This document shows, in pieces, positions 914-16,650 of a DNA stretch of 24,299 bases (its first letter is position 1; each line of letters opens with the position of its first letter). The translations under genes and the position numbers were made by a program. The notes below the pieces were generated by a model. The model was not told where the DNA came from, made no database searches, and worked only from the letters and a program-made list of their open reading frames with translations. The stretch is taken from contig URDJ01000039.1 in assembly GCA_900546615.1 (NCBI GenBank), forward strand, positions 1 through 24,299. The letters are read 5' to 3'. The stretch comes from an uncultured Eubacteriales bacterium (GTDB lineage Bacteria > Bacillota > Clostridia > Oscillospirales > Oscillospiraceae).

Positions 914-932
914 AAGGATTGGAGGCGTTCAA

Positions 933-1283: not shown

Positions 1284-1289
1284 CGACCC

Positions 1290-1688: not shown

Positions 1689-1699
1689 ATTCGCGCCTC

Positions 1700-1751: not shown

Positions 1752-1815
1752 TAGTCTTGTATCATCTAATTTGATTTTTCGGCTCACGGGGTAAAATTAA
1801 GCCGAGGTGAGTTTG

Positions 1816-2070: not shown

Positions 2071-2078
2071 AATAATTT

Positions 2079-2115
2079 GCGAGGGCTACTGCGTTTCGCA
2101 GTAGCCCTCGCTTTT
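2079..2115 (+). terminator. Strong intrinsic terminator after the small XRE gene
   Basis: A perfect 15-bp stem (2079-2093 with 2097-2111, arm GCGAGGGCTACTGCG), a TTT loop and then TTTT at 2112-2115, starting 8 bp after the stop codon. Confidence 0.9.
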
Positions 2116-2152
2116 GCAAGCAGGGCAAAGAGGGTCCCGTTTTGCAAAAGCG
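2109..2152. repeat. 11-bp inverted repeat overlapping the terminator edge
   Basis: CGCTTTTGCAA (2109-2119) is the exact complement of 2142-2152, with a 22-nt loop. The first arm takes the last three bases of the preceding terminator stem and its T-tract. A diverged inverted copy of part of the loop and right arm (AGGGTCC, GTT and GCAAAA in order) is present at 40-55. Function unknown. Confidence 0.5.
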
Positions 2153-2186
2153 TTTGTTGAGACTCCGTCCCAAACCCATGAGAGCA

Positions 2187-2220
2187 AAAACTCTCCCGGC
2201 CTTTTGGCTGGGAGAGTTTT
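2187..2220 (-). terminator. Terminator for the leftward 2255-5054 operon
   Basis: A 15-bp stem (2187-2201 with 2206-2220, one G-U pair), a 4-nt TTTT loop, and T-rich flanks on both strands because the arms begin with AAAA and end with TTTT. It lies 34 bp beyond the stop of the 238-aa gene and, with the terminator at 2079, insulates two convergent units. Confidence 0.8.
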
Positions 2221-2254
2221 GCAGCTGTGCGCCGCGGCGGGAGCTTAAATCTTT

Positions 2255-2971: not shown

Positions 2972-2988
2972 GCTCTATCCCTCCAAAC

Positions 2989-3984
2989 CTATTCAAACGC
3001 CACCAGCAGTTTCTTCGCCAGCCGCTCGCCTGCGTGGGCGCGAAGATAGCTTGCGGCGCGCTCGGCGAAGCGGTGTGTTTTGACGGTATCCAGCTCAGCG
3101 AGAGCTATGATCCTGAGCTCGCCGTCAGGGTCGAGGGCGAACTCGCCCCAGTCGCCATCGCCATCGGCCTGGTAGCGGTAAGTACCCTGCGTCGTGCGCT
3201 CGATGCGTACCGCGTGCAAGGCACCGAGCTCGACCAGCCCCAGCGTGAGCTTTTCCACGGCGCGGCGGTATGCACGCTCTGCCGTGCGCGGGCTGGAAGC
3301 CTCGAACGCTATTGCCAGCTCCTCAAAGCTCAAGCGCTCGCTCAGCGGCGCGACCCGCCCGCAGGTCATGCATATGGCGCAGCGCTTTTCCAGGAGCGTC
3401 TGCTCCCGGAAGCTCAGCTCTGCAAACGCCGCTCTCACCTTCTCAGTCAGTATCCCGCCATGAAGTATGCTCACATAGTCCCAGGTGCAGCTCGCCTCGG
3501 CGTCGTTTTCAAGAGATGAGACATTCAACGCGAGCTGCGCCGTCTTCAGAAATCTCCCCGCGGCCGCTTCCGAGCAGCCGCGTTTTTTTATTAACTCCCT
3601 TTGCGAATCTCCCTGCGTCGAGCCATACATGAGCGCGGCCATCTGCCGCACAGCCTTGTACTCGTCAAGGCCCGAAAACGAGCCGGCCTCCTCGAGCATT
3701 CGCGCTCTGAGCAGCGCATTTTGCACGTCATGGTGGACAAAGGTCTCAAAACGCGACCCTATGCGCGGATCAAATCTCTCCCAGCGCTCGAGCATCGCGG
3801 CGGCGCAGGCGAGCTTGTACTCCAAGAGCGTCTCCGCGTCAAATGCCCGTTTGCCGAGAAATCTGCGCATGCGCTCGTTGAGCGACGGCTCGTAGAAGTG
3901 CAGGAATGCCGCGAAGCCCTCGCTCTCAGGCTCCGGCGGCGGGTCGAGTTGAAATGCCCGCTCTGCTTCCCTGAGCGTCAGCAT
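2989..3984 (-). CDS. Sigma-70-like RNA polymerase sigma factor of the element
   Basis: A 331-residue protein with divergent sigma-70 features. Residues about 55-92 resemble region 2 (LERWERFDPRIGSRFETFV matches the usual 'kFDp..G.rF.Ty' signature). Residues about 185-247 resemble region 4: AELSFREQTLLEKR, then the putative HTH ERLSFEELAIAFEASSPRT and RAYRRAVEKL. Between them the region-4 part contains a CxxCxxC cluster (Cys202, 205, 208). The C-terminal ~80 residues match nothing I know. Its ATG lies inside the end of the upstream gene (7-nt overlap), so the two are translationally coupled. It may direct polymerase to element promoters, or be a divergent replication or regulatory protein with a sigma-like fold. 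The sigma call is moderate. Confidence 0.65.
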   Translation of the reverse strand: MLTLREAERAFQLDPPPEPESEGFAAFLHFYEPSLNERMRRFLGKRAFDAETLLEYKLACAAAMLERWERFDPRIGSRFETFVHHDVQNALLRARMLEEAGSFSGLDEYKAVRQMAALMYGSTQGDSQRELIKKRGCSEAAAGRFLKTAQLALNVSSLENDAEASCTWDYVSILHGGILTEKVRAAFAELSFREQTLLEKRCAICMTCGRVAPLSERLSFEELAIAFEASSPRTAERAYRRAVEKLTLGLVELGALHAVRIERTTQGTYRYQADGDGDWGEFALDPDGELRIIALAELDTVKTHRFAERAASYLRAHAGERLAKKLLVAFE

Positions 3985-5054
3985 TTTCGCTCTGCTTCGG
4001 CGCGAAGCGCCTCCTGGGTCATCTCGGGCTCATAGGCCGCACGTGCGTAATTCGCGTCGGACAGCGCACGCTGGAGCTTGTCCTTGGCCAGCTTGCGCAT
4101 GGCGTCCGCCGTGGCCTCGTCGAGCCTACCGCGGCGCTGGCTCTGCAAAATGGTGTTGAGCCGTCGGTTGTATATCGCCTTCAGCGGGTGGTCGCCGGCG
4201 AGCTCGCGCTGCTCACGCCCGCGCATGGCCCCGACCTGGCGGCACGTTCTGCCGCGGGCGTCGCCGGGGGCGAACCCGCCGCAATACTTCGTGCGGCGTG
4301 CGTCGAGCGTGAGGAACCAGCGCCCGCAGACGGCGCACTTTCGCGGCGCATGGCCGATGATGAGACCCTCGTAAAGGTCCGAGCGCAGCAGCCCGACGAA
4401 CGAGACATAGTTCATCCGGCGAAGCAGCTGCGGCGGCTCGCCTGCCGAGGCGTACTGCACAGAGGCGTTGGCCAGCGCCATCAGGCTGTCGTTTGAAGCG
4501 GAGAAATGCGCACTGAACGCTGCAGCGAGGCCGTCCGGCGTTCGCTCCACATCGTCCGCGTTTATTGCCTCGGCCAGTGCTGTCATGGCCCGCTTGTACT
4601 CAGCGAGCGAGAACGCAAGCTGCGCGAAGACCGGCGCTATCTTGCTCAGCAGCGCGCCCTTGCGCAGGCCCGGCTCCTGCGCCGCCGCAAGGCCCCGTGT
4701 GAGCATGGCCATGTTGAGCGCGCGCACCTGTTCAATGGCCTCCGGCGTGAAAGCGTCCGCTATGCCTGGCGCGTAAAAGTCACGGTCCAGGTGCGAAAAC
4801 GGCTCCATCTCAAGCATGGTATTGAGTAGTTGAAGCGCGGCCCCGCACGCCCTCTCCAGAAGCTCATCCGTCACGCTCAGCATCCCGAGCGCCGCGATGA
4901 ACTCGTTGAGCACAGCGCACGGCTCATTGAGCGCCGCGATCACGGTGTCGGGAATGTTCAGCGCCTCGCAGCCGAGCGTGCCCGCCGGAGCCGTGCGTCC
5001 CTCATATGCCACAGTGCCGCGCCCGAATTCGAGAGTCAGCAGTTCGTGTTCCAT
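3978..5054 (-). CDS. DUF6076-type zinc-ribbon protein
   Basis: A 358-residue protein with a long helical N-terminal part (1-230) and a C-terminal treble-clef or ribbon-like metal site: Cys240-x2-Cys243 (RKCAVCGRWFLTLD), Cys258 (TKYCGG), Cys271 (GRTCRQVGA), followed by a conserved basic helix HPLKAIYNRRLNT. This arrangement matches the DUF6076 family as I know it, found in clostridial phages and elements; its biochemical role is unknown. ATG at 5054 is preferred over an ATG 14 codons upstream, because GGAGGG (5059-5064) sits just before it. It heads a leftward operon with the sigma-like gene, whose start overlaps its last codons by 7 nt. DNA or RNA binding is an inference from the zinc site and basic tail. 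Confidence 0.75.
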   Translation of the reverse strand: MEHELLTLEFGRGTVAYEGRTAPAGTLGCEALNIPDTVIAALNEPCAVLNEFIAALGMLSVTDELLERACGAALQLLNTMLEMEPFSHLDRDFYAPGIADAFTPEAIEQVRALNMAMLTRGLAAAQEPGLRKGALLSKIAPVFAQLAFSLAEYKRAMTALAEAINADDVERTPDGLAAAFSAHFSASNDSLMALANASVQYASAGEPPQLLRRMNYVSFVGLLRSDLYEGLIIGHAPRKCAVCGRWFLTLDARRTKYCGGFAPGDARGRTCRQVGAMRGREQRELAGDHPLKAIYNRRLNTILQSQRRGRLDEATADAMRKLAKDKLQRALSDANYARAAYEPEMTQEALRAEAERKC

Positions 5055-5079
5055 AGCGCCCTCCATGGGATTTTTTCTC

Positions 5080-5108
5080 ATTGTACCATATGTCATGTTT
5101 TTTGAAAA
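5080..5108 (-). promoter_or_regulatory. Promoter of the DUF6076-type/sigma-like operon
   Basis: On the minus strand, -35 TTTTCA (5103-5108), a 17-bp spacer and -10 TACAAT (5080-5085), 25 bp before the ATG at 5054. It shares a 145-bp gap with the divergent CHC2 gene, for which I see no convincing promoter. Confidence 0.55.
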
Positions 5109-5167
5109 CGGCCTGTCACGCTGTTTGCCGTGTTTTTCGCGTATTCCTCATATTACTGGTGGAGGGC

Positions 5168-5203
5168 ATGGCCCTTACAACAAAATTGGAGGAATGCGAA
5201 TGA
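5168..5203 (+). CDS. Possible 11-aa leader peptide before the CHC2 gene
   Basis: ATG at 5168 follows GGTGGAGGG (5158-5166) and opens an 11-codon frame (MALTTKLEECE). Its stop TGA overlaps the ATG of the CHC2 gene at 5200, and the frame contains that gene's own GGAGG. The arrangement looks like a coupling or leader cistron. It is short enough to be chance. Confidence 0.2.
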   Translation: MALTTKLEECE

Positions 5204-5673
5204 CAAACTACAGCGTGCTGAGACACGCGGCGCCGCTCGGGGAGGCGGCGCGGCGCTATGGGACGGTGCGGCGCGGCTTTATGCGCTGCCCGTTCCATGA
5301 GGACAGGGTGCCGAGCCTGAAGCTCTACGACGACCACTTCCACTGCTTCGGCTGCGGCGCGCACGGGGACGTGGTGGACCTCACGGCTGGGCTGCTCGGC
5401 TGCTCGAAGGCCGAGGCGGCGCGGCGGCTCTTGGAGGACTTCGGCCAAGGCGCGGCTCACCCTCGAGGGCTCGCGGCCTGCAGGCGGGAGCTCTCACGCT
5501 GCCGGGCGGCGCTCGCACCGAGGACGATGGGCGAGGAGCCCAGGGAAGAATACGCCGAGGCCTGCCGGCTCGGCGAGTGGACAGGGCATCTGCTCGAGGC
5601 CGGCGCGAGCGGAGCGGAGACCCGGAGCGTCGAGCGTGAGACCGCGCGGCTCATGGAGGTCTGCTGTGGTTGA
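5200..5673 (+). CDS. CHC2 zinc-finger (primase-type) DNA-binding protein
   Basis: A 157-residue protein whose N-terminal half is a DnaG-type CHC2 zinc finger: Cys30-x2-His33 (RCPFHEDRVPS) and Cys49-x2-Cys52 (HCFGCGAHGDVVD), followed by a helical extension. In DnaG this domain recognises single-stranded template. Here no TOPRIM or archaeo-eukaryotic primase catalytic domain follows, so it can only be the binding part of a primase. ATG at 5200 lies 7 nt after GGAGG (5188-5192); an ATG at 5194 is too close to that site. The next gene, a P4/D5-type helicase, overlaps it by 8 nt, placing both in one replication module. Such zinc-finger plus helicase pairs occur in phages and integrative elements. 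Confidence 0.88.
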   Translation: MTNYSVLRHAAPLGEAARRYGTVRRGFMRCPFHEDRVPSLKLYDDHFHCFGCGAHGDVVDLTAGLLGCSKAEAARRLLEDFGQGAAHPRGLAACRRELSRCRAALAPRTMGEEPREEYAEACRLGEWTGHLLEAGASGAETRSVERETARLMEVCCG

Positions 5674-6955
5674 GTTTCCCGAATGGTACGATGGCAAGAC
5701 GGTGAGCGAGGCCAAATTCTGCGAAGAATTCCTCAAGACCCACCCGATGAAGAGCGTGAACGGCACCTTCTTCACCGTCGAGGGCCGGGTCACGGACGAG
5801 GACGCGCTGCGGCGCGAGATCTACGAGGAGCTCAAGCCCTTCTTCCAGACCGGGCTCACGAAGCGCGTGGCGAACCTGCTCGAAGCCCTGAGGCTCGAGG
5901 CCTACGCGCCCGACCTGCCCATCCAGCGCGACCGCATCCACGTCGCAAACGGCACGCTCTTCCTCGACGGGCGCTTCAGCGCGGAGCGCGAGTTCTGCCG
6001 CAACCGGCTGCCGGTGGCCTACAACGAGGGCGCGGCCGCGCCGGAGACCTGGCTGCGCTTTCTCTCGGAGCTGCTCTACCCCGAGGACATCCCGACGCTG
6101 CAGGAGTTCATGGGCTACTGCCTGCTGCCTACGACGAAGGGGCAGAAGCTACTGATGCTCATCGGGCGCGGCGGCGAGGGCAAGAGCCGCATCGGGCTGG
6201 TGCTGCGAGCGCTGCTCGGCACGAACATGGCGACGGGCAGCATCTCAAAGATCGAAACCAGCCGCTTCGCCCGCGCCGACCTGGAGCACGAGCTGGTGAT
6301 GCTCGACGACGACATGAAGCTCGAGGCCCTGCCCCAGACGAACTACATCAAGGCCATCGTCACCGCCGAGCTGCCCATGGACCTCGAGCGCAAGGGCCGG
6401 CAGAGCTACCAGGGCGACCTGTACGTCCGCTTTCTCGGCTTCGGCAACGGCTCGCTCAAGGCGCTCTACGACCGCAGCGAGGGCTTTTTCCGGCGGCAGA
6501 TCATCCTCACAACGAGGCCGAAAGACGCGAGCCGCACGGACGATCCGTTCATCGCCGAGAAGATGTGCGCCGAGGCGGAGGGCATATTCCTCTGGTGCCT
6601 TGAGGGGCTGCGGCGACTCATCGCGAACAACTACAGCTTCACGCTCAGCGAGCGTGCACGCGAGAACATGGCCGAGGCGGTGATCGATGGCAATAACGCG
6701 GTGGATTTCATGAGATCTGAGGGCTACATACGGCTCAAGGCCGATGCGGAGGCAAGCAGCCGGGACATCTACGCCGTGTACAAGCTCTGGTGTGAGGACA
6801 ATGCACTCAATCCGCTGTCACCGCGCAGCCTCAGCGCGCATCTCATCGAGAACCAGGAGGTCTACGGACTCGAACCTACGAACAAGATCTATCTGCCCGG
6901 CGGCCGCCGCGTGCGCGGGTTTATGGGTGTGGAGCTGCTCCAGCGCGCGATGTGA
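5666..6955 (+). CDS. P4/D5-type superfamily 3 replicative helicase
   Basis: A 429-residue ATPase of the phage/plasmid primase (P4 family) C-terminal type. Walker A is G167-x-G-G-E-G-K-S174 (LIGRGGEGKSRIG); Walker B is VMLDDDMK (211-218). A sensor-like Asn lies in GFGNGSLKAL (258-267), with a candidate arginine finger in EGFFRRQII. The N-terminal ~130 residues carry the D5_N-type lead-in domain, and the C-terminal ~90 are wHTH-like (RDIYAVYKLWCEDN). It should form a ring that melts and unwinds the element origin. The start is GTG at 5666 with GGAGG at 5655-5659, overlapping the CHC2 gene by 8 nt; an upstream in-frame GTG at 5636 lacks a ribosome site. No primase domain is present. Confidence 0.9.
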   Translation: MVEFPEWYDGKTVSEAKFCEEFLKTHPMKSVNGTFFTVEGRVTDEDALRREIYEELKPFFQTGLTKRVANLLEALRLEAYAPDLPIQRDRIHVANGTLFLDGRFSAEREFCRNRLPVAYNEGAAAPETWLRFLSELLYPEDIPTLQEFMGYCLLPTTKGQKLLMLIGRGGEGKSRIGLVLRALLGTNMATGSISKIETSRFARADLEHELVMLDDDMKLEALPQTNYIKAIVTAELPMDLERKGRQSYQGDLYVRFLGFGNGSLKALYDRSEGFFRRQIILTTRPKDASRTDDPFIAEKMCAEAEGIFLWCLEGLRRLIANNYSFTLSERARENMAEAVIDGNNAVDFMRSEGYIRLKADAEASSRDIYAVYKLWCEDNALNPLSPRSLSAHLIENQEVYGLEPTNKIYLPGGRRVRGFMGVELLQRAM

Positions 6956-7125
6956 ATTCGAGTTCAAACATTGCGTACAAGCGTACATATGTACGCTCGT
7001 ACACGGGAAAACAACTCAGTAACGATTTTTTGAAGAAACCTGAAGAAGCCAAATCTGAAGGTATCAATCCAGATCAAGGTATAAACCCCGCTCAGGATGC
7101 GGAAACTATTGCCAAAAGGAGCTGA
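6952..7125 (+). CDS. Probable hidden 57-aa protein between helicase and 92-aa gene
   Basis: A frame opening at GTG 6952 overlaps the helicase stop (ATGTGA junction), runs 57 codons and ends at TGA 7123-7125, one base before the TTG start of the next gene. Its last codons contain that gene's ribosome site (AAAAGGAGC). The C-terminal half (KKPEEAKSEGINPDQGINP) has low-complexity, protein-like composition rich in E, N, P and Q. It would be basic at the N-terminus and acidic in the middle. No ribosome site precedes the GTG, so expression would depend on coupling to the helicase. A near-perfect GTAC palindrome lies within codons 8-18. I recognise no family. Confidence 0.42.
   Translation: MNSSSNIAYKRTYVRSYTGKQLSNDFLKKPEEAKSEGINPDQGINPAQDAETIAKRS
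6975..7002. repeat. 28-bp near-perfect palindrome with four GTAC motifs every 8 bp
   Basis: GTAC occurs at 6975, 6983, 6991 and 6999, exactly 8 bp apart. The 16-bp core GCGTACATATGTACGC (6981-6996) is a perfect palindrome, and the symmetry extends to 28 bp with one mismatched pair. It lies 20 bp after the helicase stop. It may be an operator, an origin element bound by the replication proteins, or a coding coincidence within the putative 57-aa frame. Confidence 0.7.
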
Positions 7126-7126
7126 T

Positions 7127-7405
7127 TTGCGCTTGCAAATAGATATATTGGATAATCAAAAAATCGTGGCTGTGTGGCTGACGAGGGCGGAACGCGATGA
7201 CGAATCAGTCATGGCGCGGCTGCGCTCACTGCGGTCCGAGTACAAGGCCAAGAAATATACTGTTGCCGAGTACCATTCCGGCAGCGGCGACCTGCACACG
7301 AGCGTCCTCGACCTGCTGGCCTACAACAAGCGCCGCGCCGCCGAGCTGCAGGTCCAGCGCGAGAAGGCCGCCGCCAAAGCGGAGCACTCCGCGCAGGAGA
7401 GGTAA
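7127..7405 (+). CDS. Unknown 92-aa element protein
   Basis: No named family recognised. The protein starts MRLQIDILDNQKIVAVWLTRAE, a two-strand motif followed by a helical, Arg-rich part and a strongly charged C-terminal helix (AYNKRRAAELQVQREKAAAKAE) that may be a coiled coil. TTG at 7127 is preferred over an in-frame ATG at 7097, because GGAG (7118-7121, within AAAAGGAG) sits 5 nt upstream. The ATG option would add ten residues of weak character. It closes the replication operon, directly after the putative 57-aa frame, and is followed by a terminator. Proteins of this size next to serine recombinases can be accessory or directionality factors, but nothing in the sequence proves it. Confidence 0.7.
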   Translation: MRLQIDILDNQKIVAVWLTRAERDDESVMARLRSLRSEYKAKKYTVAEYHSGSGDLHTSVLDLLAYNKRRAAELQVQREKAAAKAEHSAQER

Positions 7406-7421
7406 GATAAGATAAGAAGAA

Positions 7422-7455
7422 GCCCGCCGGTTCACCACTCACCGGCGGGCGCTTT
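7422..7455 (+). terminator. Terminator of the replication operon
   Basis: A perfect 10-bp stem GCCCGCCGGT (7422-7431) with 7441-7450, a 9-nt loop, then GCTTTGG. It starts 17 bp after the stop of the 92-aa gene. The T-run is short (three). Three tandem GATAA copies (within 7403-7418) precede it. Confidence 0.7.
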
Positions 7456-7498
7456 GGCTGCGTTACGCTCGCTGCAAATGCTGCCTCTACGGAATCAA

Positions 7499-7604
7499 GT
7501 TTATGCACTGGAATGCAAAAACTTCTTAAAGTCTGCGAGTTTGTGCACTGGAGTGCAAAAACTTTTAAAATTCGACAGGTTTGTGCATTGGAGAACAAAA
7601 ATAT
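7499..7604. repeat. Three direct repeats at exact 40-bp spacing upstream of the recombinase operon
   Basis: Copies of about 26 bp begin at 7499, 7539 and 7579. Their shared core is GTTTRTGCAYTGGA followed by a TGCA half-site and an A-run. Each holds an imperfect dyad; in copy 2 it is perfect (TGCACT-GG-AGTGCA). Copy 3 is the most diverged. The array sits in the 379-bp gene-free stretch 7406-7784, ending 14 bp before the promoter -35 box. Regular spacing near four helical turns suggests cooperative protein binding on one face, as activator or repressor sites or as origin iterons. Confidence 0.8.
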
Positions 7605-7618
7605 GATGACAATGCCCC

Positions 7619-7647
7619 TTGCGGAATGCCGCGGGGTATGGTACAAT
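7619..7647 (+). promoter_or_regulatory. Promoter of the nuclease-recombinase operon
   Basis: TTGCGG (7619-7624), a 17-bp spacer and TACAAT (7642-7647). A dyad CCCC-TT-GCGG-AATG-CCGC-GGGG (7615-7636) covers the -35 box. The transcript would have a leader of about 130 nt holding a CCGAGA hairpin (7700-7714) and a second TCTCGG copy (7734-7739) able to compete for it. Confidence 0.65.
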
Positions 7648-7784
7648 GATATCAATTATTAACACGCAGTATCTAAATTACATTGATAGAAAGCAACACC
7701 CGAGATAATCTCGGCAGTTCATAGAAAAGCTGCTCTCGGCTGCGAGGACGCACATAAGGTATTCATAGGAAAGGGGTGAGGCAA

Positions 7785-8252
7785 ATGGGTATCGCGTTTC
7801 GACATTCGGCGGGGTTTGGGAAGCGGATGGAGTACAACCTGATAGGCAAAATGCTGATGGAAGGGCTTGACTGCTATGTCCCCTTGGTGGACGACCACGG
7901 TGTGGACTGCGTCATCAAGAAGAGCGATGGGACGTTTATAGAGATACAGATAAAGGCCCGCTCAAACAATGTTAACGACGGGGATGCGGCTTTGTTCTCT
8001 GCGATCACGCACGATTACAGGCCGAACTTCTATTTCGTTTTTTACTCCGAGCGCCTGGACAACACGATGTGGATACTGTCCTCGGAGGAATTTTTGAACG
8101 AATGTGTGACGAACAAGACTGGCAAGAACACCGGAAAACGGAGCATATGGTTCAACGGGAACCGCATAGACCCGGAGACCGGGGAGAGGAAAGAGTACTG
8201 CAAAGAGCGGTACAAGAAATACATAGCGACGGATTTCTCAAGATTCCATTGA
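7785..8252 (+). CDS. PD-(D/E)XK nuclease-like protein
   Basis: A 155-residue protein with a compact PD-(D/E)XK-type signature: DHGVDCVI supplies Asp41, and FIEIQIKARS supplies Glu53, Gln55 and Lys57. This D-x11-E-x-Q-x-K pattern is typical of DUF4365-like and Holliday-junction resolvase-like folds. An upstream helix with Glu16 (RMEYNLIGKML) matches the usual first-helix acid. ATG at 7785 is preferred over GTG at 7776, because GGTGAGG and AAGGGG lie immediately before it. It is followed by the recombinase gene after 16 nt, so both share one transcript. It might process element DNA or act in restriction or defence; function is inferred from fold only, and some family members are catalytically inactive. 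Confidence 0.75.
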   Translation: MGIAFRHSAGFGKRMEYNLIGKMLMEGLDCYVPLVDDHGVDCVIKKSDGTFIEIQIKARSNNVNDGDAALFSAITHDYRPNFYFVFYSERLDNTMWILSSEEFLNECVTNKTGKNTGKRSIWFNGNRIDPETGERKEYCKERYKKYIATDFSRFH

Positions 8253-8268
8253 CACAGGAAGGTATATG

Positions 8269-10398
8269 ATGAGCGAAGCATTAAATATCGCCGGGTACTG
8301 CCGCATCTCGGTGGACGACGAGCTGGACAGGGACAATGTGTCCATCGAGAACCAGAAGGCCATCATCTCCGACTTCGTGGGGCGCAAGTTCCCCGGCGCG
8401 GAGCTCGTGTTTTTCGAGGACAGGGACAGGTCGGGCTACACCTTTGAGCAGCGCGAGGGCTATCAGGCCATGCGGCGGGAGCTTGTGGCGCACAGGCTGG
8501 ACATCCTCGTCATCAAGGACTTCTCACGCTTCTCCCGCCGCAACAGCCGGGGCCTCGTCGAGCTCGAGGACCTGCGCGACGCAGGTGCGCGCATAATCTC
8601 CATCGGAGACGGCATCGACTTCCCGAACGACGACGACTGGCTCAAGATACAGTTCCAGTTCCTCATAAACGAGATGCCCGTCACCGACACGAGCAAGAAG
8701 GTCAAAAGCGTCATCCGCCGCCGTCAGGAGGACGGCAAGTGGATCTGCGCCGCGCCCTACGGCTACATCATCAACAAGAAGCAGCAGTTCGAGGTCGTGC
8801 CGGTCGAGGCCGACATCGTTCGCCGCATCTACCGTATGTACATCGACGGCTGGGGCTACAAGAAGATCGCGAACGCCCTCACCGACGAGGGCATACCCAC
8901 GCCGCGCATGGCCGAGCGCGAGCGCAAGCTCGCCGAGGGCGAGGACTACCGCCGCAGCGTCAAGAGCGCGTGGAGCATCGCCACCGTCCAGGGCATACTC
9001 GACAACGACTTCTACATCGGCACGCTGCGCCAGGGCAAGTACACCCGCGCCAAGATAAACGGCCGGGACATCCTGCGCGACGAGGTGGAGCAGATCGTCA
9101 TCGAAAACCACCACCAGCCCATCATGGACTACCGCACCTTCGCCGCAGTCCGCGCCCTGCGCGAGAAGCGCGCGAAGTACAACTACCGCGGCGTCAAGAT
9201 AAACGAGAACGTCTACTCCGGCTTCCTCGAGTGCGGCGACTGCGGCGCGCCGATGTTCGCGCTCAGCCGGCGCGACCTCAAGCCCGCCTACACCTGCGGC
9301 ACCTATCACCGGCGCGGCACCGCGGGCTGCACCACCCACCACATCCGCGTGGACAAGCTCGACGAGCTCGTGAAGCTCTACGTCCGGAAGGTGCGCGACA
9401 ACTCCGCGGAGATGCTCGAGCGGCTCAACGCCGAGCTCGCCCGCGAGCCCGAGGACGTGGCGGAAACGGAGCGCAGCGCGGCGAACCTTGAGGACGTGCT
9501 GCTCGACGCTCAGGAGGAGCTCAAGGCCACGAAGCGCCAGCGCGTGCGGGACATCATGCGCCACCCGGAAAACGAGGCCGTGCTCGAGGCGACCTATGAC
9601 GAGTTGGAAGCCGACCTCCTGCGGAAGATAGAGGGACTGCAGAGCCAGATAGAGCACGTCACGGACAGGCGCAACACGATGATCCGCGCAAACCGCGCCG
9701 CAAAGACGGCGATGGAGGTCTTTGACGACATCATAGGAAAGGAAAAGCTCGAAAAGCAGGATTTGGAACTCATAATCGAGCGCATCAAGGTCTACGAGGA
9801 CCACGTTGAAATACAGCTCAAGGCCGACATAGACACCCTGCTGCGCCGCGGCGAGCTGCCGGAGCCGGACACGGAGCCCGTGACGGTGCTGCAGACCTCG
9901 ACCCACCACCCGGACAGGACCATCAGCGCCAATGTTGTCAATGAGGGCGACCCGCTGGAGATTTTTACGGATAAGGATGGGGAGGTCATCTTTAAAAAGT
10001 ATTCGCCCATCGGCGAGCTCTCCGACTTTGCGGCGCAGATATGCGACTCGCTGCACAAGTCCACGGACTGCATAGCCGCCGTCTGCGACCGCGACTCCAT
10101 CATCGCCGTCGCCGGCGGAGGACGCCGCGAGCTCTTTGAAAAGCGCGTCTCACCCGAGCTCGAGCAGATCATGGAGTCCCGCCGCGTCTACCGCCACGAG
10201 TCCGGAGGCGCTGCGATGCCTGTAACCGACTCCGAAAGCGGCTTCTGCGTCTCCGTCGCCGCCCCGGTCATCTCCGAGGGCGACCTCATGGGCTGCGTCA
10301 TCTTCGCTTCGGCCAAAAACTCCCCGCCCTCCGGCGAGGTGGAGCTCAAACTCGCCCAAACCGTCGCCGCTTTCCTCGGCAAGCAGATGGAAAGCTGA
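8269..10398 (+). CDS. Large serine recombinase fused in frame to the SpoVT C-terminal region
   Basis: A 709-residue chimera. Residues 1-558 are a large serine recombinase: catalytic Ser14 in GYCRIS, the EDRDRSG and KDFSRFSRR motifs, the Recombinase domain (about 160-300), a zinc ribbon (Cys322, 325, 343, 354), a coiled coil (about 380-480) and the usual final strand IKVYEDHVEIQLK. Residues 559-709 match SpoVT from EGDPLEIF through KKYSPI, CDRDSIIAVAG and the terminal FLGKQMES, lacking only the first ~30 SpoVT residues. ATG 8269 has AGGAAGG (8256-8262) at 6 nt; ATG 8266 is the alternative. Family members integrate and excise elements by Ser-linked cleavage at attP and attB. Fusion identity is strong by motif; activity of the tail is unknown. 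Confidence 0.93.
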   Translation: MSEALNIAGYCRISVDDELDRDNVSIENQKAIISDFVGRKFPGAELVFFEDRDRSGYTFEQREGYQAMRRELVAHRLDILVIKDFSRFSRRNSRGLVELEDLRDAGARIISIGDGIDFPNDDDWLKIQFQFLINEMPVTDTSKKVKSVIRRRQEDGKWICAAPYGYIINKKQQFEVVPVEADIVRRIYRMYIDGWGYKKIANALTDEGIPTPRMAERERKLAEGEDYRRSVKSAWSIATVQGILDNDFYIGTLRQGKYTRAKINGRDILRDEVEQIVIENHHQPIMDYRTFAAVRALREKRAKYNYRGVKINENVYSGFLECGDCGAPMFALSRRDLKPAYTCGTYHRRGTAGCTTHHIRVDKLDELVKLYVRKVRDNSAEMLERLNAELAREPEDVAETERSAANLEDVLLDAQEELKATKRQRVRDIMRHPENEAVLEATYDELEADLLRKIEGLQSQIEHVTDRRNTMIRANRAAKTAMEVFDDIIGKEKLEKQDLELIIERIKVYEDHVEIQLKADIDTLLRRGELPEPDTEPVTVLQTSTHHPDRTISANVVNEGDPLEIFTDKDGEVIFKKYSPIGELSDFAAQICDSLHKSTDCIAAVCDRDSIIAVAGGGRRELFEKRVSPELEQIMESRRVYRHESGGAAMPVTDSESGFCVSVAAPVISEGDLMGCVIFASAKNSPPSGEVELKLAQTVAAFLGKQMES
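9915..9970 (+). other. Predicted attR junction inside spoVT
   Basis: Left of base 9943 the sequence is the end of the recombinase, with an unusually AT-rich stretch AATGTTGTCAAT (9931-9942). From 9943 (GAGGGCGACCCGCTGGAG) it encodes SpoVT from residue ~31. Large serine recombinases use attachment sites of roughly 40-50 bp with a 2-bp crossover, so the core should lie within or next to 9935-9950. The exact crossover dinucleotide needs the other end of the element. Confidence 0.7.
9943..10398 (+). pseudogene. spoVT: 3' part of interrupted spoVT (stage V sporulation protein T)
   Basis: The 151 codons cover the second half of the AbrB-type swapped-hairpin domain (EGDPLEIFTDKDGEVIFKKYSPI) and the full GAF-like regulatory domain to the natural C-terminus. 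SpoVT is normally ~180 residues and begins with the AbrB half that contacts DNA; that half and the native promoter are absent here. SpoVT is a forespore regulator under sigma-G and is needed for proper spores. The reading frame is intact and undecayed and the C-terminal region is well conserved, which argues that it is still used after excision. It is translated here only as the tail of the recombinase. Confidence 0.88.
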
Positions 10399-10406
10399 CA
10401 ACAAAA

Positions 10407-10439
10407 CGGCCTGCCTCCGACAGGGGGCAGGCCGCCGCT
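10407..10439 (+). terminator. Terminator after the recombinase-spoVT gene
   Basis: CGGCCTGCC (10407-10415) pairs with 10426-10434, with further pairing inside; then CCGCTTTT. It lies between two converging genes and presumably was the native spoVT terminator. The short T-run continues to 10442. Confidence 0.7.
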
Positions 10440-10441
10440 TT

Positions 10442-12283
10442 TCAGCTCAGCTCGAACATACCGTTATACAGTTTATAATATAGCCCCCGCTGCTCGAGCA
10501 GGTCGTCGTGGTCGCCGCGCTCGGCTATTCGACCGTGCTCCAGCACCATGATGGCGTTGGAATTCCGCACGGTCGAGAGCCGGTGCGCTATGACGAACAC
10601 CGTTCGGCCCTCCATCAGTCGGTCCATAGCCCTCTCTATCAGAGCCTCCGTGCGCGTGTCGACCGAGCTGGTGGCCTCATCCAGAATGAGAACCGGAGGG
10701 TCCGCTACCGCCGCCCTCGCTATCGCCAGCAGCTGCCTTTGCCCCTGCGAGAGGTTCGCTCCGTCCGAGGTCACCATCGTATCATAGCCCTGCGGCAGCC
10801 TCCTTATGAACGAGTCAGCGTTCGCCACTTTCGCCGCAGCCTCGATCTCCTCCCGGCTCGCGTCCAGCCTGCCGAAGCGGATGTTGTCCGCAATCGTTCC
10901 CGTGAACAGGTGCGTATCCTGCAGCACCATGCCCAGTGAGCGCCTCAGCGACTCCTTGCTGATCTCGCGTACGTCCAGCCCGTCATAGGTGACCCGGCCG
11001 CTCTCCACCTCGTAGAAGCGGTTTATGAGGTTCGTTATCGTTGTCTTTCCGGCGCCGGTTGAGCCGACGAAGGCTATCTTCTGGCCGGGACGCGCGTAGA
11101 GGCTTATGCCGTGCAGTACCGGATGTCCCTTCTCGTAGCCGAAGTCCACATTCTCGAAGCGGACGTCCCCGCGCAGGGGCCTGAGCGTCCCGTCCGGGCT
11201 GCGCCAGGCCCATTTGCCTGTCTTTTTCCCGCTCTCTTTCAGCTGCCCGCCGGTCTCCTCCACGTTCACCAACACGGTCCTGCCCTCGTCGATCTCCGGC
11301 TTCTCGTCCATGACCTCGAAGACCCTCTCGGCCCCGGCAAGCGCCGCGAGCAGGAAGTTCGACTGCTGTGTGAACTGGTTTATCGGCGCTGCTGCCTGAC
11401 GGACAAACACGAGGTAGCTCGCAAGACTGCCCGCGTCAGTCATGCCCGTGAGCGCCATGATGCCACCGAGCACGGCGACGATGGCATAGTTTATGTACGA
11501 GATGCTCACGACGGCGGGGACCATCGTTGAGGCGTAGCTCTGGGCGCTGGTACCGGCCCTCCTGAGCGCGTCGTTTTTTGCTTCAAAGTCCTCCATGCAT
11601 ATGCTCTCGTGGTTGAAGACCTTGACGACCTTCTGGCCGTTTACCATCTCCTCGATGTATCCGTCCAGCTCGCCGAGGCAGCGTTGCTGTTTGTTGTAGT
11701 ACATCTTGCTCCGCTTCCCGCTGTACCTTATGTAGAGGAACATTGCGGCGTAGCAGACGGCCACAACCAGCGAGAGCTGCCAGTTGAGCACAAAGAGCAG
11801 GATGAGCGTGCCCGCCATCTGGATAAAGCTCTGTATGACCATTGCGAAGCTGTTGTTGAGGGCGTCGGCGATGGTGTCGATGTCGTTTGTGAAGTAGCTC
11901 ATGACATCGCCGCGGTTACGGCTGTCGAAATACTGAAGCGGCAAGGTCTGGAGGTGGGCAAAGAGGTCGCGGCGGATGTCAAAGAGCGACCTCTGCGCCA
12001 TCGTGACCATGCACTGGGTGTAGCCCAGTGCGCAGAGCACGCCAAGGCCGTAGACGCAGGCGGTAAATATGACACCCGCAACAAAACTGCCCCAGTCCCC
12101 GCCGGTGAGGCTGTTGACAACGGGGCGTATCATGTACGTCCCGACGAGGTTGGCAATGGCGCTCACGGTGACGAGCAGTGCAACGGCAAAGAGCAGCGTC
12201 CGGTAATGTCCCATATAGCTGAGCAGCCGCCGGACCGTCTGCCAGAGATGTTTGGGCTTTTTACCGCTGAGCGGACGCGCCAT
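10442..12283 (-). CDS. ABC exporter half-transporter with consensus ATPase site (TM288-like)
   Basis: A 613-residue type IV ABC exporter half: six membrane helices in about 30-320, then a nucleotide-binding domain with Walker A GSTGAGKT (407-414), signature LSQGQ (511-515), Walker B VLILDE (531-536) with catalytic Glu536, and H-loop His567. The LSQGQRQLL variant is what TM288-type subunits carry when paired with a partner having a degenerate site, as the upstream gene has. ATG 12283 is preferred, because GGGAGG (12292-12297) is 8 nt upstream; an in-frame GTG at 12292 overlaps that site. The gene overlaps the upstream half-transporter by 23 bp. Substrate unknown; multidrug export is typical. 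Confidence 0.93.
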   Translation of the reverse strand: MARPLSGKKPKHLWQTVRRLLSYMGHYRTLLFAVALLVTVSAIANLVGTYMIRPVVNSLTGGDWGSFVAGVIFTACVYGLGVLCALGYTQCMVTMAQRSLFDIRRDLFAHLQTLPLQYFDSRNRGDVMSYFTNDIDTIADALNNSFAMVIQSFIQMAGTLILLFVLNWQLSLVVAVCYAAMFLYIRYSGKRSKMYYNKQQRCLGELDGYIEEMVNGQKVVKVFNHESICMEDFEAKNDALRRAGTSAQSYASTMVPAVVSISYINYAIVAVLGGIMALTGMTDAGSLASYLVFVRQAAAPINQFTQQSNFLLAALAGAERVFEVMDEKPEIDEGRTVLVNVEETGGQLKESGKKTGKWAWRSPDGTLRPLRGDVRFENVDFGYEKGHPVLHGISLYARPGQKIAFVGSTGAGKTTITNLINRFYEVESGRVTYDGLDVREISKESLRRSLGMVLQDTHLFTGTIADNIRFGRLDASREEIEAAAKVANADSFIRRLPQGYDTMVTSDGANLSQGQRQLLAIARAAVADPPVLILDEATSSVDTRTEALIERAMDRLMEGRTVFVIAHRLSTVRNSNAIMVLEHGRIAERGDHDDLLEQRGLYYKLYNGMFELS

Positions 12284-14012
12284 CGGCCTCACCTCCCTTC
12301 ATCTGCGAGGCATAGATTTCCTGATAAATCGGGTCCTCCGCGAGGAGCTGCGTATGCGTGCCGACGGCGTGGATGCGGCCGTCGTCGAGTATGACGATCT
12401 TATCGGTGTTCATGACGGAGGATATCCTCTGCGCTATGACGATCTTGGTCACACCGCGAAGCTGCGCGAGCGCCGAGCGTATCCTGGCCTCGGTGGCCGT
12501 GTCCACGGCGGAGGTGGAGTCGTCGAAAATCAGCACCTTCGGGTCTTTGAGCAGCGCGCGTGCGATGCACAGGCGCTGCTTCTGGCCGCCGGAGACGTTT
12601 ACACCGCCCTGTCCGAGGTCGGTGTCCAGGCCCTTCGGCATGCGCTCGATGAACTCGTCGGCGCAGGCTATGCGGCAGGCGGCCATGAGATTTTCATCGT
12701 CGGCGCTGGCGTCGCCCCAGAGCAGGTTTTCGCGTATCGTGCCGGAAAAGAGCACGTTCTTCTGCAGTACCATGGCGACGGCGTCGCGCAGGGCGGCGAG
12801 GTCGTAGGAGCGCACGTCGAGTCCGCCCACCTTTACCGAACCCTCCGTTGCGTCGTAGAGCCGGGGGATGAGCTGTACGAGCGTTGTCTTGGCCGAGCCG
12901 GTGCCGCCGAGTATGCCCACGGTCTCGCCGGCGCCTATGTGCAGGTTTACGTCGGAGAGCGCATACTCGGAGGCGTCGGCCCTGTACTTGAAGGAGACGT
13001 TCTCGAACTGGATCTCCCCGTCGCGCACCTGCATGACGGCGTCGTCGGGGGAGGAGAGGGCGGGCTGCTCGTCGAGCACCTCGGCTATGCGCCGGGCGCT
13101 GGCGAGGGAGCGGGTGAGCAGCAGGAATACGTTGGAGATGAACATCATGGAGTTCATCACCTGCAAAACATAACTCAAAAAGCCGGTCAGCTCGCCGACC
13201 TGCAGCTCGGACCTCGAGATCATGCCGCCGCCGAACCACATGATGCCCACGATGGCGCTGTACATTGCCAGCTGGAAGGAGGGAAGGTTCAGCAGGGCCC
13301 TTCTGAAGGTGCCGAGGCTCGTGCCCATGAGCGAGGAATTTACCTCGCCGAACTTGCCTTCCTCGTACTCTCCGCGCACGAAGGCCTTGACTGCTCGGAT
13401 GGCGGTGAGGTTTTCCTGTACGACGGCGTTGAGCCGGTCGACCGCCTTCTGGAGTATCGAGTAGCGGGGCGCTACGCTGCGGACTATGAAGAACATGATG
13501 CCCCCGAGTACGGGAGTGCAGACGATGAAGACGAGGGCTAGCCTTGCGTTCATCATGATCGACAGCCCGATGCCCATTATGAGCATGACCGGGCTGCGCA
13601 CCAGCGGGCGCATGCCGGAGATCACGGCATTCTGTATGACCGTGACGTCGGTGGTCATCCTTGTGACGAGGCTCGAGACCTCGAAGTGGTCGAGGTTCTG
13701 GAAGGCGTAGTCCTGCACTCTGCGGAACTCCTCTTTGCGGATGTTGGCCCCGAGACCATAGGCCGCGCGCGCGCCGAAGCGGGCGTGCAGCAGCCCGCTG
13801 ATGAGGGCGAGGATTGCGCAGACTCCCATTTGTACGCCTTTCATGAGGATATAGTGCACGTCGCGGTTGGCAACGCCGACATCTATGAGGTCGGCCATAA
13901 GCACGGGTATGACCAGCTCGAAAAAGGTCTCGACCAGCACGAGGAACATGCCGAGCAGCATATATCGCCTGTATTCCCGAAGGCAGGAGAAGATACGTCT
14001 GAGTTCAGGCAT
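12261..14012 (-). CDS. ABC exporter half-transporter with degenerate ATPase site (TM287-like)
   Basis: A 583-residue exporter half with six predicted membrane helices (about 16-310) and a nucleotide-binding domain. Walker A is GGTGSAKT (369-376), with Ala374 where Gly is usual. Signature is VSGGQ (473-477). Walker B is VLIFDD, so Asp498 replaces the catalytic Glu, and Gln528 replaces the H-loop His. Loss of both catalytic residues here, with a complete set in the partner, is the hallmark of asymmetric heterodimeric exporters such as TM287/288 and BmrCD. It lies in a tightly overlapping operon: 8 bp with the MarR gene upstream, 23 bp with the partner downstream. Probably a drug or peptide exporter controlled by that MarR protein. 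Confidence 0.93.
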   Translation of the reverse strand: MPELRRIFSCLREYRRYMLLGMFLVLVETFFELVIPVLMADLIDVGVANRDVHYILMKGVQMGVCAILALISGLLHARFGARAAYGLGANIRKEEFRRVQDYAFQNLDHFEVSSLVTRMTTDVTVIQNAVISGMRPLVRSPVMLIMGIGLSIMMNARLALVFIVCTPVLGGIMFFIVRSVAPRYSILQKAVDRLNAVVQENLTAIRAVKAFVRGEYEEGKFGEVNSSLMGTSLGTFRRALLNLPSFQLAMYSAIVGIMWFGGGMISRSELQVGELTGFLSYVLQVMNSMMFISNVFLLLTRSLASARRIAEVLDEQPALSSPDDAVMQVRDGEIQFENVSFKYRADASEYALSDVNLHIGAGETVGILGGTGSAKTTLVQLIPRLYDATEGSVKVGGLDVRSYDLAALRDAVAMVLQKNVLFSGTIRENLLWGDASADDENLMAACRIACADEFIERMPKGLDTDLGQGGVNVSGGQKQRLCIARALLKDPKVLIFDDSTSAVDTATEARIRSALAQLRGVTKIVIAQRISSVMNTDKIVILDDGRIHAVGTHTQLLAEDPIYQEIYASQMKGGEADGASAQR

Positions 14013-14448
14013 CCGGGCAGACCTCCTCCGAGCGAAGGTTCCGGTACGCGCGGCGGAGGAAGGAGGCGAACAGTTCCCTTTCCTCGTCGGAAAAGCCGCG
14101 GAGCAGCCGCTCGTCGAAGCGCGCGCCGCATTCAGACCAGGCGAGGGCGGCCTGCCGGCCCTTTTCAGTCAGCTCGACTATACCGCAGCGTTTGCGCGGT
14201 GAGCCCGCTTCGCGGGTTATAAAGCCATCGCGTTCGAGTGGGAGCAGCATCCGCGAGACTGCCGCCGGGTCGATCTCGAAGTAGTCGGCCAGTTCTTTCT
14301 GCATACAGCTGCCGTGTGCCAGCAAATAGCTCAGGAGCTTCGGTTGGCCGGCGCCGAGGCCGAGCGCCGCCCCCTCGCGCCGCAGCTCCGTCCTTTGGGC
14401 GTGGAACAGCCGGTAGAGCATCATGTGAAATCTGCGTTCCAACAGCAT
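14005..14448 (-). CDS. MarR-family transcriptional regulator
   Basis: A 147-residue winged-helix protein. The recognition helix and wing lie at about 50-87 (QKELADYFEIDPAAVSRMLL, then RDGFITREAGSPRKR). The outer helices (1-35 and 105-140) give the usual dimerisation domain. It heads the operon for the two ABC exporter halves, the common MarR-controlled drug-efflux arrangement; ligand binding would release repression. ATG at 14448 lies only 2 nt after AGGAGG, unusually tight; the in-frame TTG at 14442 would have better spacing (8 nt), so the true start may be two codons later. Tandem dyads downstream of the -10 box are its likely operator. Confidence 0.9.
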   Translation of the reverse strand: MLLERRFHMMLYRLFHAQRTELRREGAALGLGAGQPKLLSYLLAHGSCMQKELADYFEIDPAAVSRMLLPLERDGFITREAGSPRKRCGIVELTEKGRQAALAWSECGARFDERLLRGFSDEERELFASFLRRAYRNLRSEEVCPDA

Positions 14449-14460
14449 TGCCTCCTATAA

Positions 14461-14514
14461 TTGACAAATCAATGATTGACATATCAAGTATAGCACATAT
14501 AGAGAAAAAGTAAA
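14461..14514 (-). promoter_or_regulatory. MarR-exporter promoter with tandem operators
   Basis: On the minus strand, -35 TTTACT (14509-14514), a 16-bp spacer and -10 TATACT (14487-14492). Just downstream, two 12-bp dyads TTGACAAATCAA (14461-14472) and TTGACATATCAA (14476-14487) are spaced 15 bp apart, both TTGA/TCAA palindromes. They cover the start point, as expected for an autorepressing MarR protein. Confidence 0.75.
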
Positions 14515-14604
14515 GGGGAAGCGGGTGCTTGACAAAAAGGGAGGAAGGGTTTACGCTCCATACAAGGAGACCCTGCGGGGCGATAAAGTATGGAGATGGT
14601 GGTC

Positions 14605-15219
14605 ATGAAGGGCGACAATCGCAGTTTCTGGCAGAGGATGTCTCTGATCTACGCGAAATTCATGAGCGGGGCTGAACCAACGTATAAAGCGGTGTGCGAG
14701 AGGATCGGGCCGGAGCTGGACTCCGGGATGGAGGTGCTGGAGCTGGCCTGCGGGACGGGGCAGCTGAGCTATCCTCTGGCCGGCCGTGTGCGGAGGTGGA
14801 TAGCGAGCGATTTTTCGAGCATGATGCTGCAGAAGGCAAGGGGCGGCGGTCCCTGGCCGGAGGGGCTTTGCTTTGAGCCGCAGGATGCCACGGCGATCAG
14901 CTATCCGGACGGGAGCTTTGACGCGGTGGTCATGGCGAACGCGCTTCATATCATGCCGTACCCGGAGAAGGCGCTGGCGGAGTGTCGGAGGGTCCTCAAG
15001 GACGACGGAGCGCTGTACGTGCCGACCTTTGTAAAGGGCGTGACAAAGAGCAACAAGCTGAGGACGAGGCTGATCCGGCTGATGGGGTTGAAGGTCTTCC
15101 ACAACTACGACAGCGAGGGCCTGTGCCAGACCGTGGCCGACGCCGGGTTCAATATCACGGAGCGGGAGATGATGGGCAGCGCCCTGATGCCGCTCTGCTA
15201 TGTAAAGGCTGTAAAATGA
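14605..15219 (+). CDS. Class I SAM-dependent methyltransferase
   Basis: A 204-residue Rossmann-fold methyltransferase. Motif I is VLELACGTGQLS (44-55); the acidic end of strand 2 is ASDFSSMML (Asp69); motif II/III is DGSFDAVVMANALHIMP, followed by AECRRVLKDDGALYVPTFV. This is the UbiE/Methyltransf_11 type acting on small molecules; substrate unknown. ATG 14605 is taken because of the GGAGATGGTGG before it and because MKGDNRSFWQRM is the usual N-terminus; ATG 14590 is possible. It is divergent from the MarR gene. A TTGACA at 14529-14534 has only a poor -10 (TACGCT) at 17 bp, overlapping an AGGGT...ACCCT dyad (14546-14574), so an activator may be needed. Confidence 0.88.
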   Translation: MKGDNRSFWQRMSLIYAKFMSGAEPTYKAVCERIGPELDSGMEVLELACGTGQLSYPLAGRVRRWIASDFSSMMLQKARGGGPWPEGLCFEPQDATAISYPDGSFDAVVMANALHIMPYPEKALAECRRVLKDDGALYVPTFVKGVTKSNKLRTRLIRLMGLKVFHNYDSEGLCQTVADAGFNITEREMMGSALMPLCYVKAVK

Positions 15220-15229
15220 AAAAGGAACT

Positions 15230-15266
15230 GCCCCGCGCCCGATTTGATCGGGTGCGGGGCGGCTTT
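15230..15266. terminator. Bidirectional terminator between methyltransferase and MATE genes
   Basis: A 14-bp GC-rich stem (15230-15243 with 15247-15260, one G-U pair) and a TTG loop. It is 10 bp from each of the two converging stop codons, with modest T-runs on both strands. Confidence 0.85.
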
Positions 15267-15269
15267 GTT

Positions 15270-16649: not shown

Positions 16650-16650
16650 T

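What the first reader, a model, noticed from the sequence alone, without database searches (positions are those of the whole stretch)
8269..10398. An integrative element interrupts the sporulation gene spoVT
The serine recombinase frame passes without a stop into the last ~151 residues of SpoVT at base 9943 (EGDPLEIF onward to the natural C-terminus); the first ~30 residues and the native promoter are gone. The element must therefore be inserted at about codon 31 of spoVT, in the manner of skin in sigK and SP-beta in spsM. I do not know of a described spoVT-interrupting element. The retained spoVT half shows no decay, which suggests that excision restores a working gene.
Basis: partly seen in the sequence, partly recalled or inferred. 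Interest (0 to 1): 0.92.

Follow-up and report, generated by a model that had tools for sequence, protein, structure and literature searches.

The report
Mobile element splits forespore gene spoVT
A mobile DNA element in gut bacteria sits inside a gene needed late in spore formation, so that its own integrase gene reads on into half of that gene, and public sequences also hold the uninterrupted gene and the integrase with its own ending; this looks like a widespread, mobile version of the spore-gene interruptions known so far from a few species.

Summary
The N-half is not in the window and no genome is held for it, so the left end is inferred from relatives. Among 400 genomes of one family, 51 show a single-frame fusion and 9 more a fusion cut by a contig end. 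Of 78 genomes examined (75 split), 25 have both halves on one contig, 24 in the expected order. Recombinase and SpoVT parts have unrelated histories: repeated integration, not an old fusion gene. Joining the ends predicts a palindromic attP that gives the recombinase its own tail; such proteins exist, as do intact SpoVTs with C-halves identical to fused ones. A companion gene, the candidate RDF, was found in 20 of 23 split and 0 of 17 intact genomes. spoVT is a forespore gene, unlike almost all genes known to be interrupted. Timing of excision is not shown.

The parts
1..9945 (.). right part of the element; its left end (with the SpoVT N-half) is taken to lie outside the window
   Evidence: no SpoVT N-half in the window; in relatives N-half and recombinase stand about 8 to 79 kb apart
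8266..10398 (+). fused ORF: large serine recombinase running into the SpoVT C-half
8266..9945 (+). recombinase part (Resolvase, Recombinase, zinc ribbon)
   Evidence: closest solved relative of this part by sequence is the SP-beta recombinase YokA, 9dxh
9918..9945 (+). element-side attachment arm (AATGTTGTCA type), in the recombinase reading frame; limits approximate
   Evidence: arm seen in the fusion loci; forms one half of the dyad attP in 20 genomes
9946..9952 (+). attR core GGCGACC, predicted crossover dinucleotide GA at 9949-9950
   Evidence: a GGYGACC core ends the N-half in 18 of 20 genomes, GGCGATC in G012, GGCGGCC in the decayed G010 (the script looked for this kind of core); intact spoVT of relatives aligns to the window from 9943
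9946..10398 (+). SpoVT C-half, codons 31-180 and stop
   Evidence: 82% nt identity to intact spoVT of G633
7097..7405 (+). companion ORF of unknown family, candidate recombination directionality factor
   Evidence: relatives in 54 of 61 loci within 4 kb upstream of the recombinase; 20 of 23 split and 0 of 17 intact genomes; no convincing Pfam family in 40 members
5636..6955 (+). P4-type primase/helicase (DUF5906)
   Evidence: TIGR01613 below its cut-off
4897..5673 (+). DnaG-type zinc-finger primase ORF (true start probably downstream of the listed one)
3978..5096 (-). DUF6076 gene that recurs in these elements
   Evidence: 6 of 21 elements or element parts clustered
10399..24299 (.). chromosomal right flank (ABC transporters, Trk system, tRNA-Ser and other genes; most names read from the ORF list)

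Best explanation
The window holds the right end (attR) of an integrative element that inserts site-specifically into codons 31-33 of spoVT (core GGYGACC). Shown by sequence: a large serine recombinase reads in frame across attR, so the integrated form encodes a recombinase-SpoVT C-domain chimera; in relatives the other end (attL) holds the first 30 codons of SpoVT and its upstream region, followed by an element-encoded tail; joining the ends gives a palindromic attP in which the recombinase gets its own tail of about 25 residues, and both this free-form recombinase and uninterrupted SpoVT exist in public data. Inferred: excision, helped by the small companion protein acting as directionality factor, rebuilds a working spoVT, while the circle carries the recombinase with its native tail and can integrate elsewhere. 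My estimates: mobile element inserted at this site, 0.97; excision that rebuilds spoVT occurs in nature, 0.85; companion is the RDF, 0.5; excision is tied to sporulation, 0.4; the exchange of the recombinase's C-terminus matters for its control, 0.3.
For: Fusion and junction. N-half fragment in 25 of 28 genomes (one partial with a stop, G007) and no full-length SpoVT match in any of the 28 (chosen because they carry fusions). In some searches together 78 genomes were examined: 75 split, G331 and G343 intact, G608 without a SpoVT C-half; 25 have both halves on one contig, 24 in the expected order and strand. N-half leaves SpoVT at the core in the 20 fetched cases. attP dyad: 14-21 of 25 positions symmetric against 8-13 for attB, 20 genomes. 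Tail codons 11-26 evolve as coding sequence (pS 0.89, pN 0.26), codons 4-10 as a DNA site (0.23, 0.31); 16 of 20 genomes used. Predicted free form found: P0122, P0124, P0125, P0126, 4 of 9 hits; P0122 is 99.0% identical over 579 aa to the fused recombinase of L025. Intact SpoVT P0131, P0132, P0136 have C-halves 100% identical to fused ones. Mobility: identities of the two parts barely correlate (Spearman 0.08, Pearson 0.30, 3081 pairs of 79 fusions; L050/L074 93% against 39%) and each part rejects the other's tree; fusions in a minority of family genomes and intact spoVT common in the order. Selection: C-half dN/dS 0.029-0.249, median 0.108, 57 non-independent pairs; N-half protein nearly invariant.
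Against: The window's own N-half and left end were not seen. Only 4 full free-form proteins were found, whereas all 120 listed hits are fused (the two searches used different words); a viral-contig scan with the joined C-terminus confirmed none of 28 pattern matches. No case shows attB and attP in the same cell or sample; intact and split alleles could be strain polymorphism, and a tandem array would also give an attP. Upstream of recombinase and companion there is no clear sporulation-promoter signal (sigma-G motif 2 of 77 and 3 of 51, shuffles 0.9 and 0.3; sigma-E/K-like 4 of 77 and 1 of 51, shuffles 6.5 and 3.0). The companion was not found in G548, G550 and G504, which proved to be split genomes with the fusion cut at a contig end. 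Exceptions: G014 has the halves in permuted order with host genes between; G507 has an inverted recombinase and no fusion; G444 has in-frame stops; G343 and G331 keep an intact spoVT plus a recombinase not fused to it.
Confidence: 0.83

Rival explanations
1. Same element, but no developmental programme: a parasite or mobilizable island that uses a gene dispensable in growth as its docking site. Carriers cannot finish spores; occasional excision or strain polymorphism gives the intact alleles.
For: No clear sporulation-type promoter at recombinase or companion; patchy distribution; 2 of 33 split genomes (G018, G021) show no recognisable sigG.
Against: C-half and N-half stay under purifying selection; sigG is full length in 28 of 33 split genomes and in pieces in 3 more; forespore-type promoter motif kept upstream of the N-half in 12 of 19. 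These also fit a young, fast-moving element.
Confidence: 0.42
2. The chimera itself is functional: the SpoVT C-domain fused to the recombinase switches recombinase activity with the integrated state, so that the free form integrates and the chimera excises only on a signal.
For: Single-frame fusion in 51 of the 61 family genomes with a full or nearly full recombinase match and a separately conserved native tail; an integration-dependent change of a phage protein's C-terminus is documented for mycobacteriophage BPs (PMC4557955, abstract).
Against: The in-frame fusion follows mechanically from one ancestral attP overlapping the integrase gene and from the conserved spoVT frame; G507 has no fusion; the model of the free form is too poor to say what the tail does (mean pLDDT 48).
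Confidence: 0.25
3. Sporulation is already lost in these hosts and spoVT is only a harmless landing site.
For: G018 and G021 show only weaker matches of the size of sigG paralogues.
Against: sigG kept in most split hosts examined; dN/dS of split C-halves (median 0.108) is like that between the window and two intact relatives (0.105 and 0.119).
Confidence: 0.08
4. A stable, vertically inherited recombinase-SpoVT fusion gene.
For: The fused architecture is common in databases: all 120 listed hits.
Against: Decoupled histories of the two parts; N-half ends at the core; intact alleles with the same C-half.
Confidence: 0.01

Closest known systems
skin elements in sigK and SP-beta in spsM (Bacillus, Clostridioides)
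   Same: serine recombinase in the element, gene split at a short core, precise excision rebuilds the gene (PMC5595907 introduction, PMC6957869 passages); among solved structures the recombinase part is closest by sequence to YokA of SP-beta
   Different: target is a forespore gene; recombinase ORF crosses the att site and is fused to the host half-gene; elements are diverse islands and the recombinase moves between hosts; timing unknown
gin element in gerE of Bacillus cereus
   Same: non-phage island splitting a gene for a sporulation transcription factor, inverted-repeat att site, extra factor GirX needed (PMC5595907 introduction and discussion read)
   Different: GerE acts in the mother cell; no fusion is mentioned in the sections read; different gene
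yin element in yabG of Clostridium botulinum
   Same: prophage-like insertion in a sporulation gene of a clostridium (PMC10747680, search listing only)
   Different: other gene; YabG is made under mother-cell regulators in C. difficile (PMC10681294, start of abstract in a listing)
Integration-dependent immunity of mycobacteriophage BPs
   Same: attP lies inside a phage gene so that integration changes the C-terminus of its product (PMC4557955, abstract)
   Different: there it is the repressor that is shortened; here the integrase itself exchanges a tail of about 25 residues for a 150-residue host domain

Membership tests
sporulation gene-intervening elements (skin, SP-beta/spsM, gin) | inserted inside the coding sequence of a sporulation gene | tested here: met
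sporulation gene-intervening elements (skin, SP-beta/spsM, gin) | own site-specific serine recombinase and att sites with a core repeat and dyad attP | tested here: met
   (dyad shown in relatives, not for the window itself)
sporulation gene-intervening elements (skin, SP-beta/spsM, gin) | excision rebuilds the gene | tested here: inconclusive
   attB-form and attP-form sequences exist but not shown for one cell or strain
sporulation gene-intervening elements (skin, SP-beta/spsM, gin) | excision timed to sporulation | not testable with these tools
   promoter scan gave no support
sporulation gene-intervening elements (skin, SP-beta/spsM, gin) | directionality factor in the element | tested here: inconclusive
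   companion in 20 of 23 split and 0 of 17 intact genomes; function untested
sporulation gene-intervening elements (skin, SP-beta/spsM, gin) | target expressed in the mother cell (true of almost all known cases, PMC6957869; not a strict requirement) | tested here: not met
   spoVT is sigma-F/sigma-G dependent in C. difficile (PMC3738446, PMC3789822 passages); forespore-type promoter motif upstream of the N-half in 12 of 19, shuffles 0.15; no expression data for these hosts
large serine recombinases | Resolvase, Recombinase and zinc-ribbon domains in order | tested here: met
integration-dependent C-terminus exchange (BPs type) | attP inside an element gene, product changed on integration | tested here: met
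   (sequence level, in relatives)
integration-dependent C-terminus exchange (BPs type) | the two forms differ in stability or activity | not testable with these tools
   no bench data

The most novel reading that the evidence does not exclude
A gene-intervening element that excises in the germ line: spoVT is needed in the forespore, so to make a spore the element must leave the chromosome that will be inherited, and must survive as a replicating circle (the window's element carries primase/helicase genes) and re-enter spoVT after germination, with the recombinase's host-derived C-domain marking the integrated state and its native tail the free state.
Probability: 0.25. Interest if true: 0.93.

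Novelty: new variant of a known kind. Interest (0 to 1): 0.78.

Why it matters
Known elements in sporulation genes sit almost all in mother-cell genes, and the reason given is that the mother cell dies while the spore genome keeps the element (PMC6957869, passages). A common family in a forespore gene, whose loss abolishes heat-resistant spores in C. difficile (PMC3789822, passages) and severely impairs sporulation in B. cereus (PMC5061766, abstract), breaks that rule or shows carriers that have given up spores. Either way it bears on transmission of gut Oscillospirales between hosts. It also offers many serine integrase and attP/attB sets, and an integrase whose C-terminus depends on whether it is integrated.

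Tried and rejected
Stable fusion gene: rejected. Chance readthrough: rejected by 82 of 82 loci with the same junction. Free form in viral contigs with the joined C-terminus: nothing confirmed. Plasmid records with the recombinase: none of 72,556 at E 1e-50; phage records: 2 unannotated faecal fragments of 50,697, one of which breaks off shortly before the att core. Sporulation promoters at recombinase and companion: not supported. Fold of the companion: confident model (mean pLDDT 90, pTM 0.52) but no PDB match at E 0.001. Structure of the free-form recombinase: too poor to use. First dN/dS attempt over all pairs (median 0.404 over 1279 pairs) mixed distant pairs; I replaced it by pairs of at least 80% identity. 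Spore phenotype of named isolates: the one paper search gave nothing usable. A first promoter script failed to find the start in intact genes; the motif used was written after I had seen the split sequences, so the 19 of 29 intact loci (3 of which I had seen before) are the fairer test; shuffles there keep base composition only. My first reading of the companion control was 20 split against 20 intact genomes; a check showed that 3 of the 20 'intact' ones are split at contig ends, and I corrected the counts. Rows dropped: 3 truncated fusions of 82; one more; 4 of 20 tails; 1 of 20 upstream regions and 4 of 33 intact loci; 21 of 82 loci without enough upstream sequence.

Full report
Observation. 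The ORF 8266-10398 is open from the recombinase into SpoVT. Domains: Resolvase, Recombinase, zinc ribbon and SpoVT_C, E 1.5e-42 for the last. The DNA of intact spoVT in two relatives (G633 82%, G431 80% identity) aligns to the window from base 9943 onward. Comparison of 82 fusion loci indicates that the triplet 9943-9945 belongs to the element and that the shared core is GGCGACC, 9946-9952. The N-half is not in the window, and no whole genome is held for it, so what follows on the left end comes from relatives.

Not a single oddity. A protein search scored 8000 candidates; all 120 listed hits are full-length fusions, 95-98% identical. A scan of one genome per species found 267 relatives, of which the best 80 were kept; 77 of them cover nearly the whole query (L047, L052 and L068 are truncated). 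Their titles are mostly Oscillospiraceae or Ruminococcaceae, with Butyricicoccus, Flavonifractor, Agathobaculum, one Lachnoclostridium sp. and several called only Clostridia or bacterium. In a less biased sample, 400 genomes of the family of G003 (Flavonifractor sp. An100), I count in the listed rows 61 genomes with the recombinase (45% identity or more), 51 of them fused to SpoVT in a single frame; the other ten are G593, G562 and G631 at contig ends, G444 with in-frame stops, and G343, G331, G507, G608, G636, G438 not fused. Nine more genomes, which the list shows only with SpoVT matches starting before residue 557, carry the recombinase C-terminus joined to SpoVT but break off 41-195 bases before the core at a contig end (9 of 9 examined). 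Most further listed rows are SpoVT matches in frames of the size of an intact gene; the list is cut. With the SpoVT profile, 269 of 295 genomes of the order of G012 match and the listed rows are nearly all full length, 1-180 (list cut). In 291 genomes of the class, 5 have the fusion, the centre genome included.

The other half. A SpoVT profile in 28 genomes behind fusion loci gave C-half matches in the fusions and no full-length match; 25 of 28 also have an N-half fragment (one, G007, partial with a stop). The curated cut-off of that profile is not a guide here, since intact genes of the order mostly fall below it (2 of 295 over it); I rely on coverage. With 50 further genomes, of which G331 and G343 have an intact spoVT and G608 no SpoVT C-half, 25 of 78 have both halves on one contig; in 24 they stand in the expected order and strand (G010 with a decayed N-half at a contig end, G507 without fusion), in G014 not. 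The 20 fetched N-halves read KATGIVRRIDDLGRVVIPKEIRRT[LM]RIREGD with few changes and then leave SpoVT at the core; G010 is decayed. From N-half to recombinase 19 elements span about 8.0 to 54.5 kb (some recombinase starts approximate), and about 79 kb in G011 by the coordinates.

Attachment sites. Joining the two ends gives an attP with 14-21 of 25 positions symmetric about the GA of GGYGACC in 20 genomes; the attB has 8-13. In this attP the recombinase frame continues into a tail of about 25 residues (consensus SQTTLTxWExFCFGMLDLAKRxGW). The first codons of this tail vary like a DNA site, the later ones like a protein under selection (16 of 20 genomes). The tail is also read as the end of the N-half product, so selection on that small protein is not excluded.

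Tests of predictions. Searching proteins with the joined C-terminus returned 9 hits of 147 candidates: P0122, P0124, P0125 and P0126 are recombinases of 597-616 aa with the predicted tail and no SpoVT domain; P0123 is a chimera with the tail; P0127 ends in another tail; P0128-P0130 carry SpoVT_C. P0122 is 99.0% identical over 579 aa to the recombinase fused to SpoVT in L025. Searching with the composite SpoVT returned intact proteins of which P0131, P0132 and P0136 have C-halves identical to those of fused proteins. So split and unsplit states of one allele, and integrated and free states of one recombinase, both exist. A tandem array of elements would also give an attP, and strain polymorphism would also give both alleles.

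Mobility. In 79 fusions, identities of the two parts hardly track each other (Spearman 0.08, Pearson 0.30); the recombinase parts are more alike than the SpoVT parts in 3011 of 3081 pairs, up to 93% against 39%. Trees of 78 share 15 of 75 splits, and each part rejects the other's tree (the program warns that 1000 resamplings are few for the AU value, but KH and SH agree). Element bodies differ: among 87 larger genes chosen from 12 elements or parts there are 3 relaxases and AAA, restriction, glycosyltransferase and DUF6076 genes; tail genes were identified in L001, a viral contig. I read this as mostly islands and at least one prophage.

Companion. Relatives of window ORF 7097-7405 stand within 4 kb upstream of the recombinase in 54 of 61 loci with enough sequence (the model was built from 8 of these sequences). 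In a genome search the companion was found in 20 of 20 genomes with full fusions and in none of 20 others. A check showed that 17 of those others have an intact spoVT and that G548, G550 and G504 are split with the fusion cut at a contig end and no recombinase in the listed matches. The count is therefore 20 of 23 split and 0 of 17 intact; at least 4 of the 20 positives (G005, G020, G023, G539) had given rows to the query alignment. In G013 the companion lies near the N-half end, which is near the recombinase in the circle. It matches no Pfam family convincingly in 40 members (2 weak single matches) and no solved fold. I take it as the candidate RDF.

Forespore question. spoVT is sigma-F/sigma-G dependent in C. 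difficile and its mutant gave no heat-resistant spores (PMC3738446 and PMC3789822, passages); deletion severely impairs sporulation in B. cereus, not in B. subtilis (PMC5061766, abstract). Upstream of the N-half a motif G[CTA]ATR-N16-18-VAYWHTA stands in 12 of 19 split and 19 of 29 intact loci against 0.15 and 0.33 expected from shuffles (written after seeing the split sequences; the sigma-G consensus is recalled). sigG is full length in 28 of 33 split genomes, in pieces in 3, not recognisable in G018 and G021. Papers state that almost all such elements are in mother-cell genes and that the spore genome then keeps the element (PMC6957869, passages; PMC5595907, introduction and discussion). Hence the tension: a spoVT element must leave the inherited chromosome, or its carrier may not make spores. 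I found no clear sporulation promoter at the recombinase or companion, so timing stays open.

Literature. Six searches aimed at spoVT or sporulation-gene elements listed no paper on a spoVT-interrupting element; only listings were seen except for the papers named above. The library lacks most subscription papers and preprints.

Noticed in passing
L194:6965-7024 (G633): A 63-base piece resembling the recombinase C-terminal part stands about 110-170 bases upstream of an intact spoVT, perhaps the scar of another element.
   Followed up: partly
L227-L235 (nine genomes): Contigs break off 41-195 bases before the attR core in nine genomes, which could reflect assembly branching where recombinase or att sequences occur in more than one form.
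   Followed up: partly
L116 and L198 (G014:C23): Fusion and SpoVT N-half are on one contig in permuted order with host genes such as a MurA-like gene between them; only about 1.5 kb of apparent element lies beside the fusion.
   Followed up: partly
L199 and L200 (G507:C2): Both att arms look normal but the recombinase is inverted and reads into the antisense of the N-half, so no SpoVT fusion is made.
   Followed up: partly
L201 (G580:C10): An intact spoVT and, 15.7 kb away, a second SpoVT C-half preceded by an att arm like that of G507, in one genome.
   Followed up: partly
L205 (G343:C59) and protein P0127: Related recombinases end in other short tails, which suggests integration at other sites; G343 keeps an intact spoVT.
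   Followed up: partly
P0123: A protein whose N-terminus matches a Mur ligase domain is joined to the recombinase C-terminus with the attP tail; probably an assembly chimera.
   Followed up: no
window 3978-5096: DUF6076 gene on the minus strand recurs in 6 of 21 of these elements or element parts.
   Followed up: no
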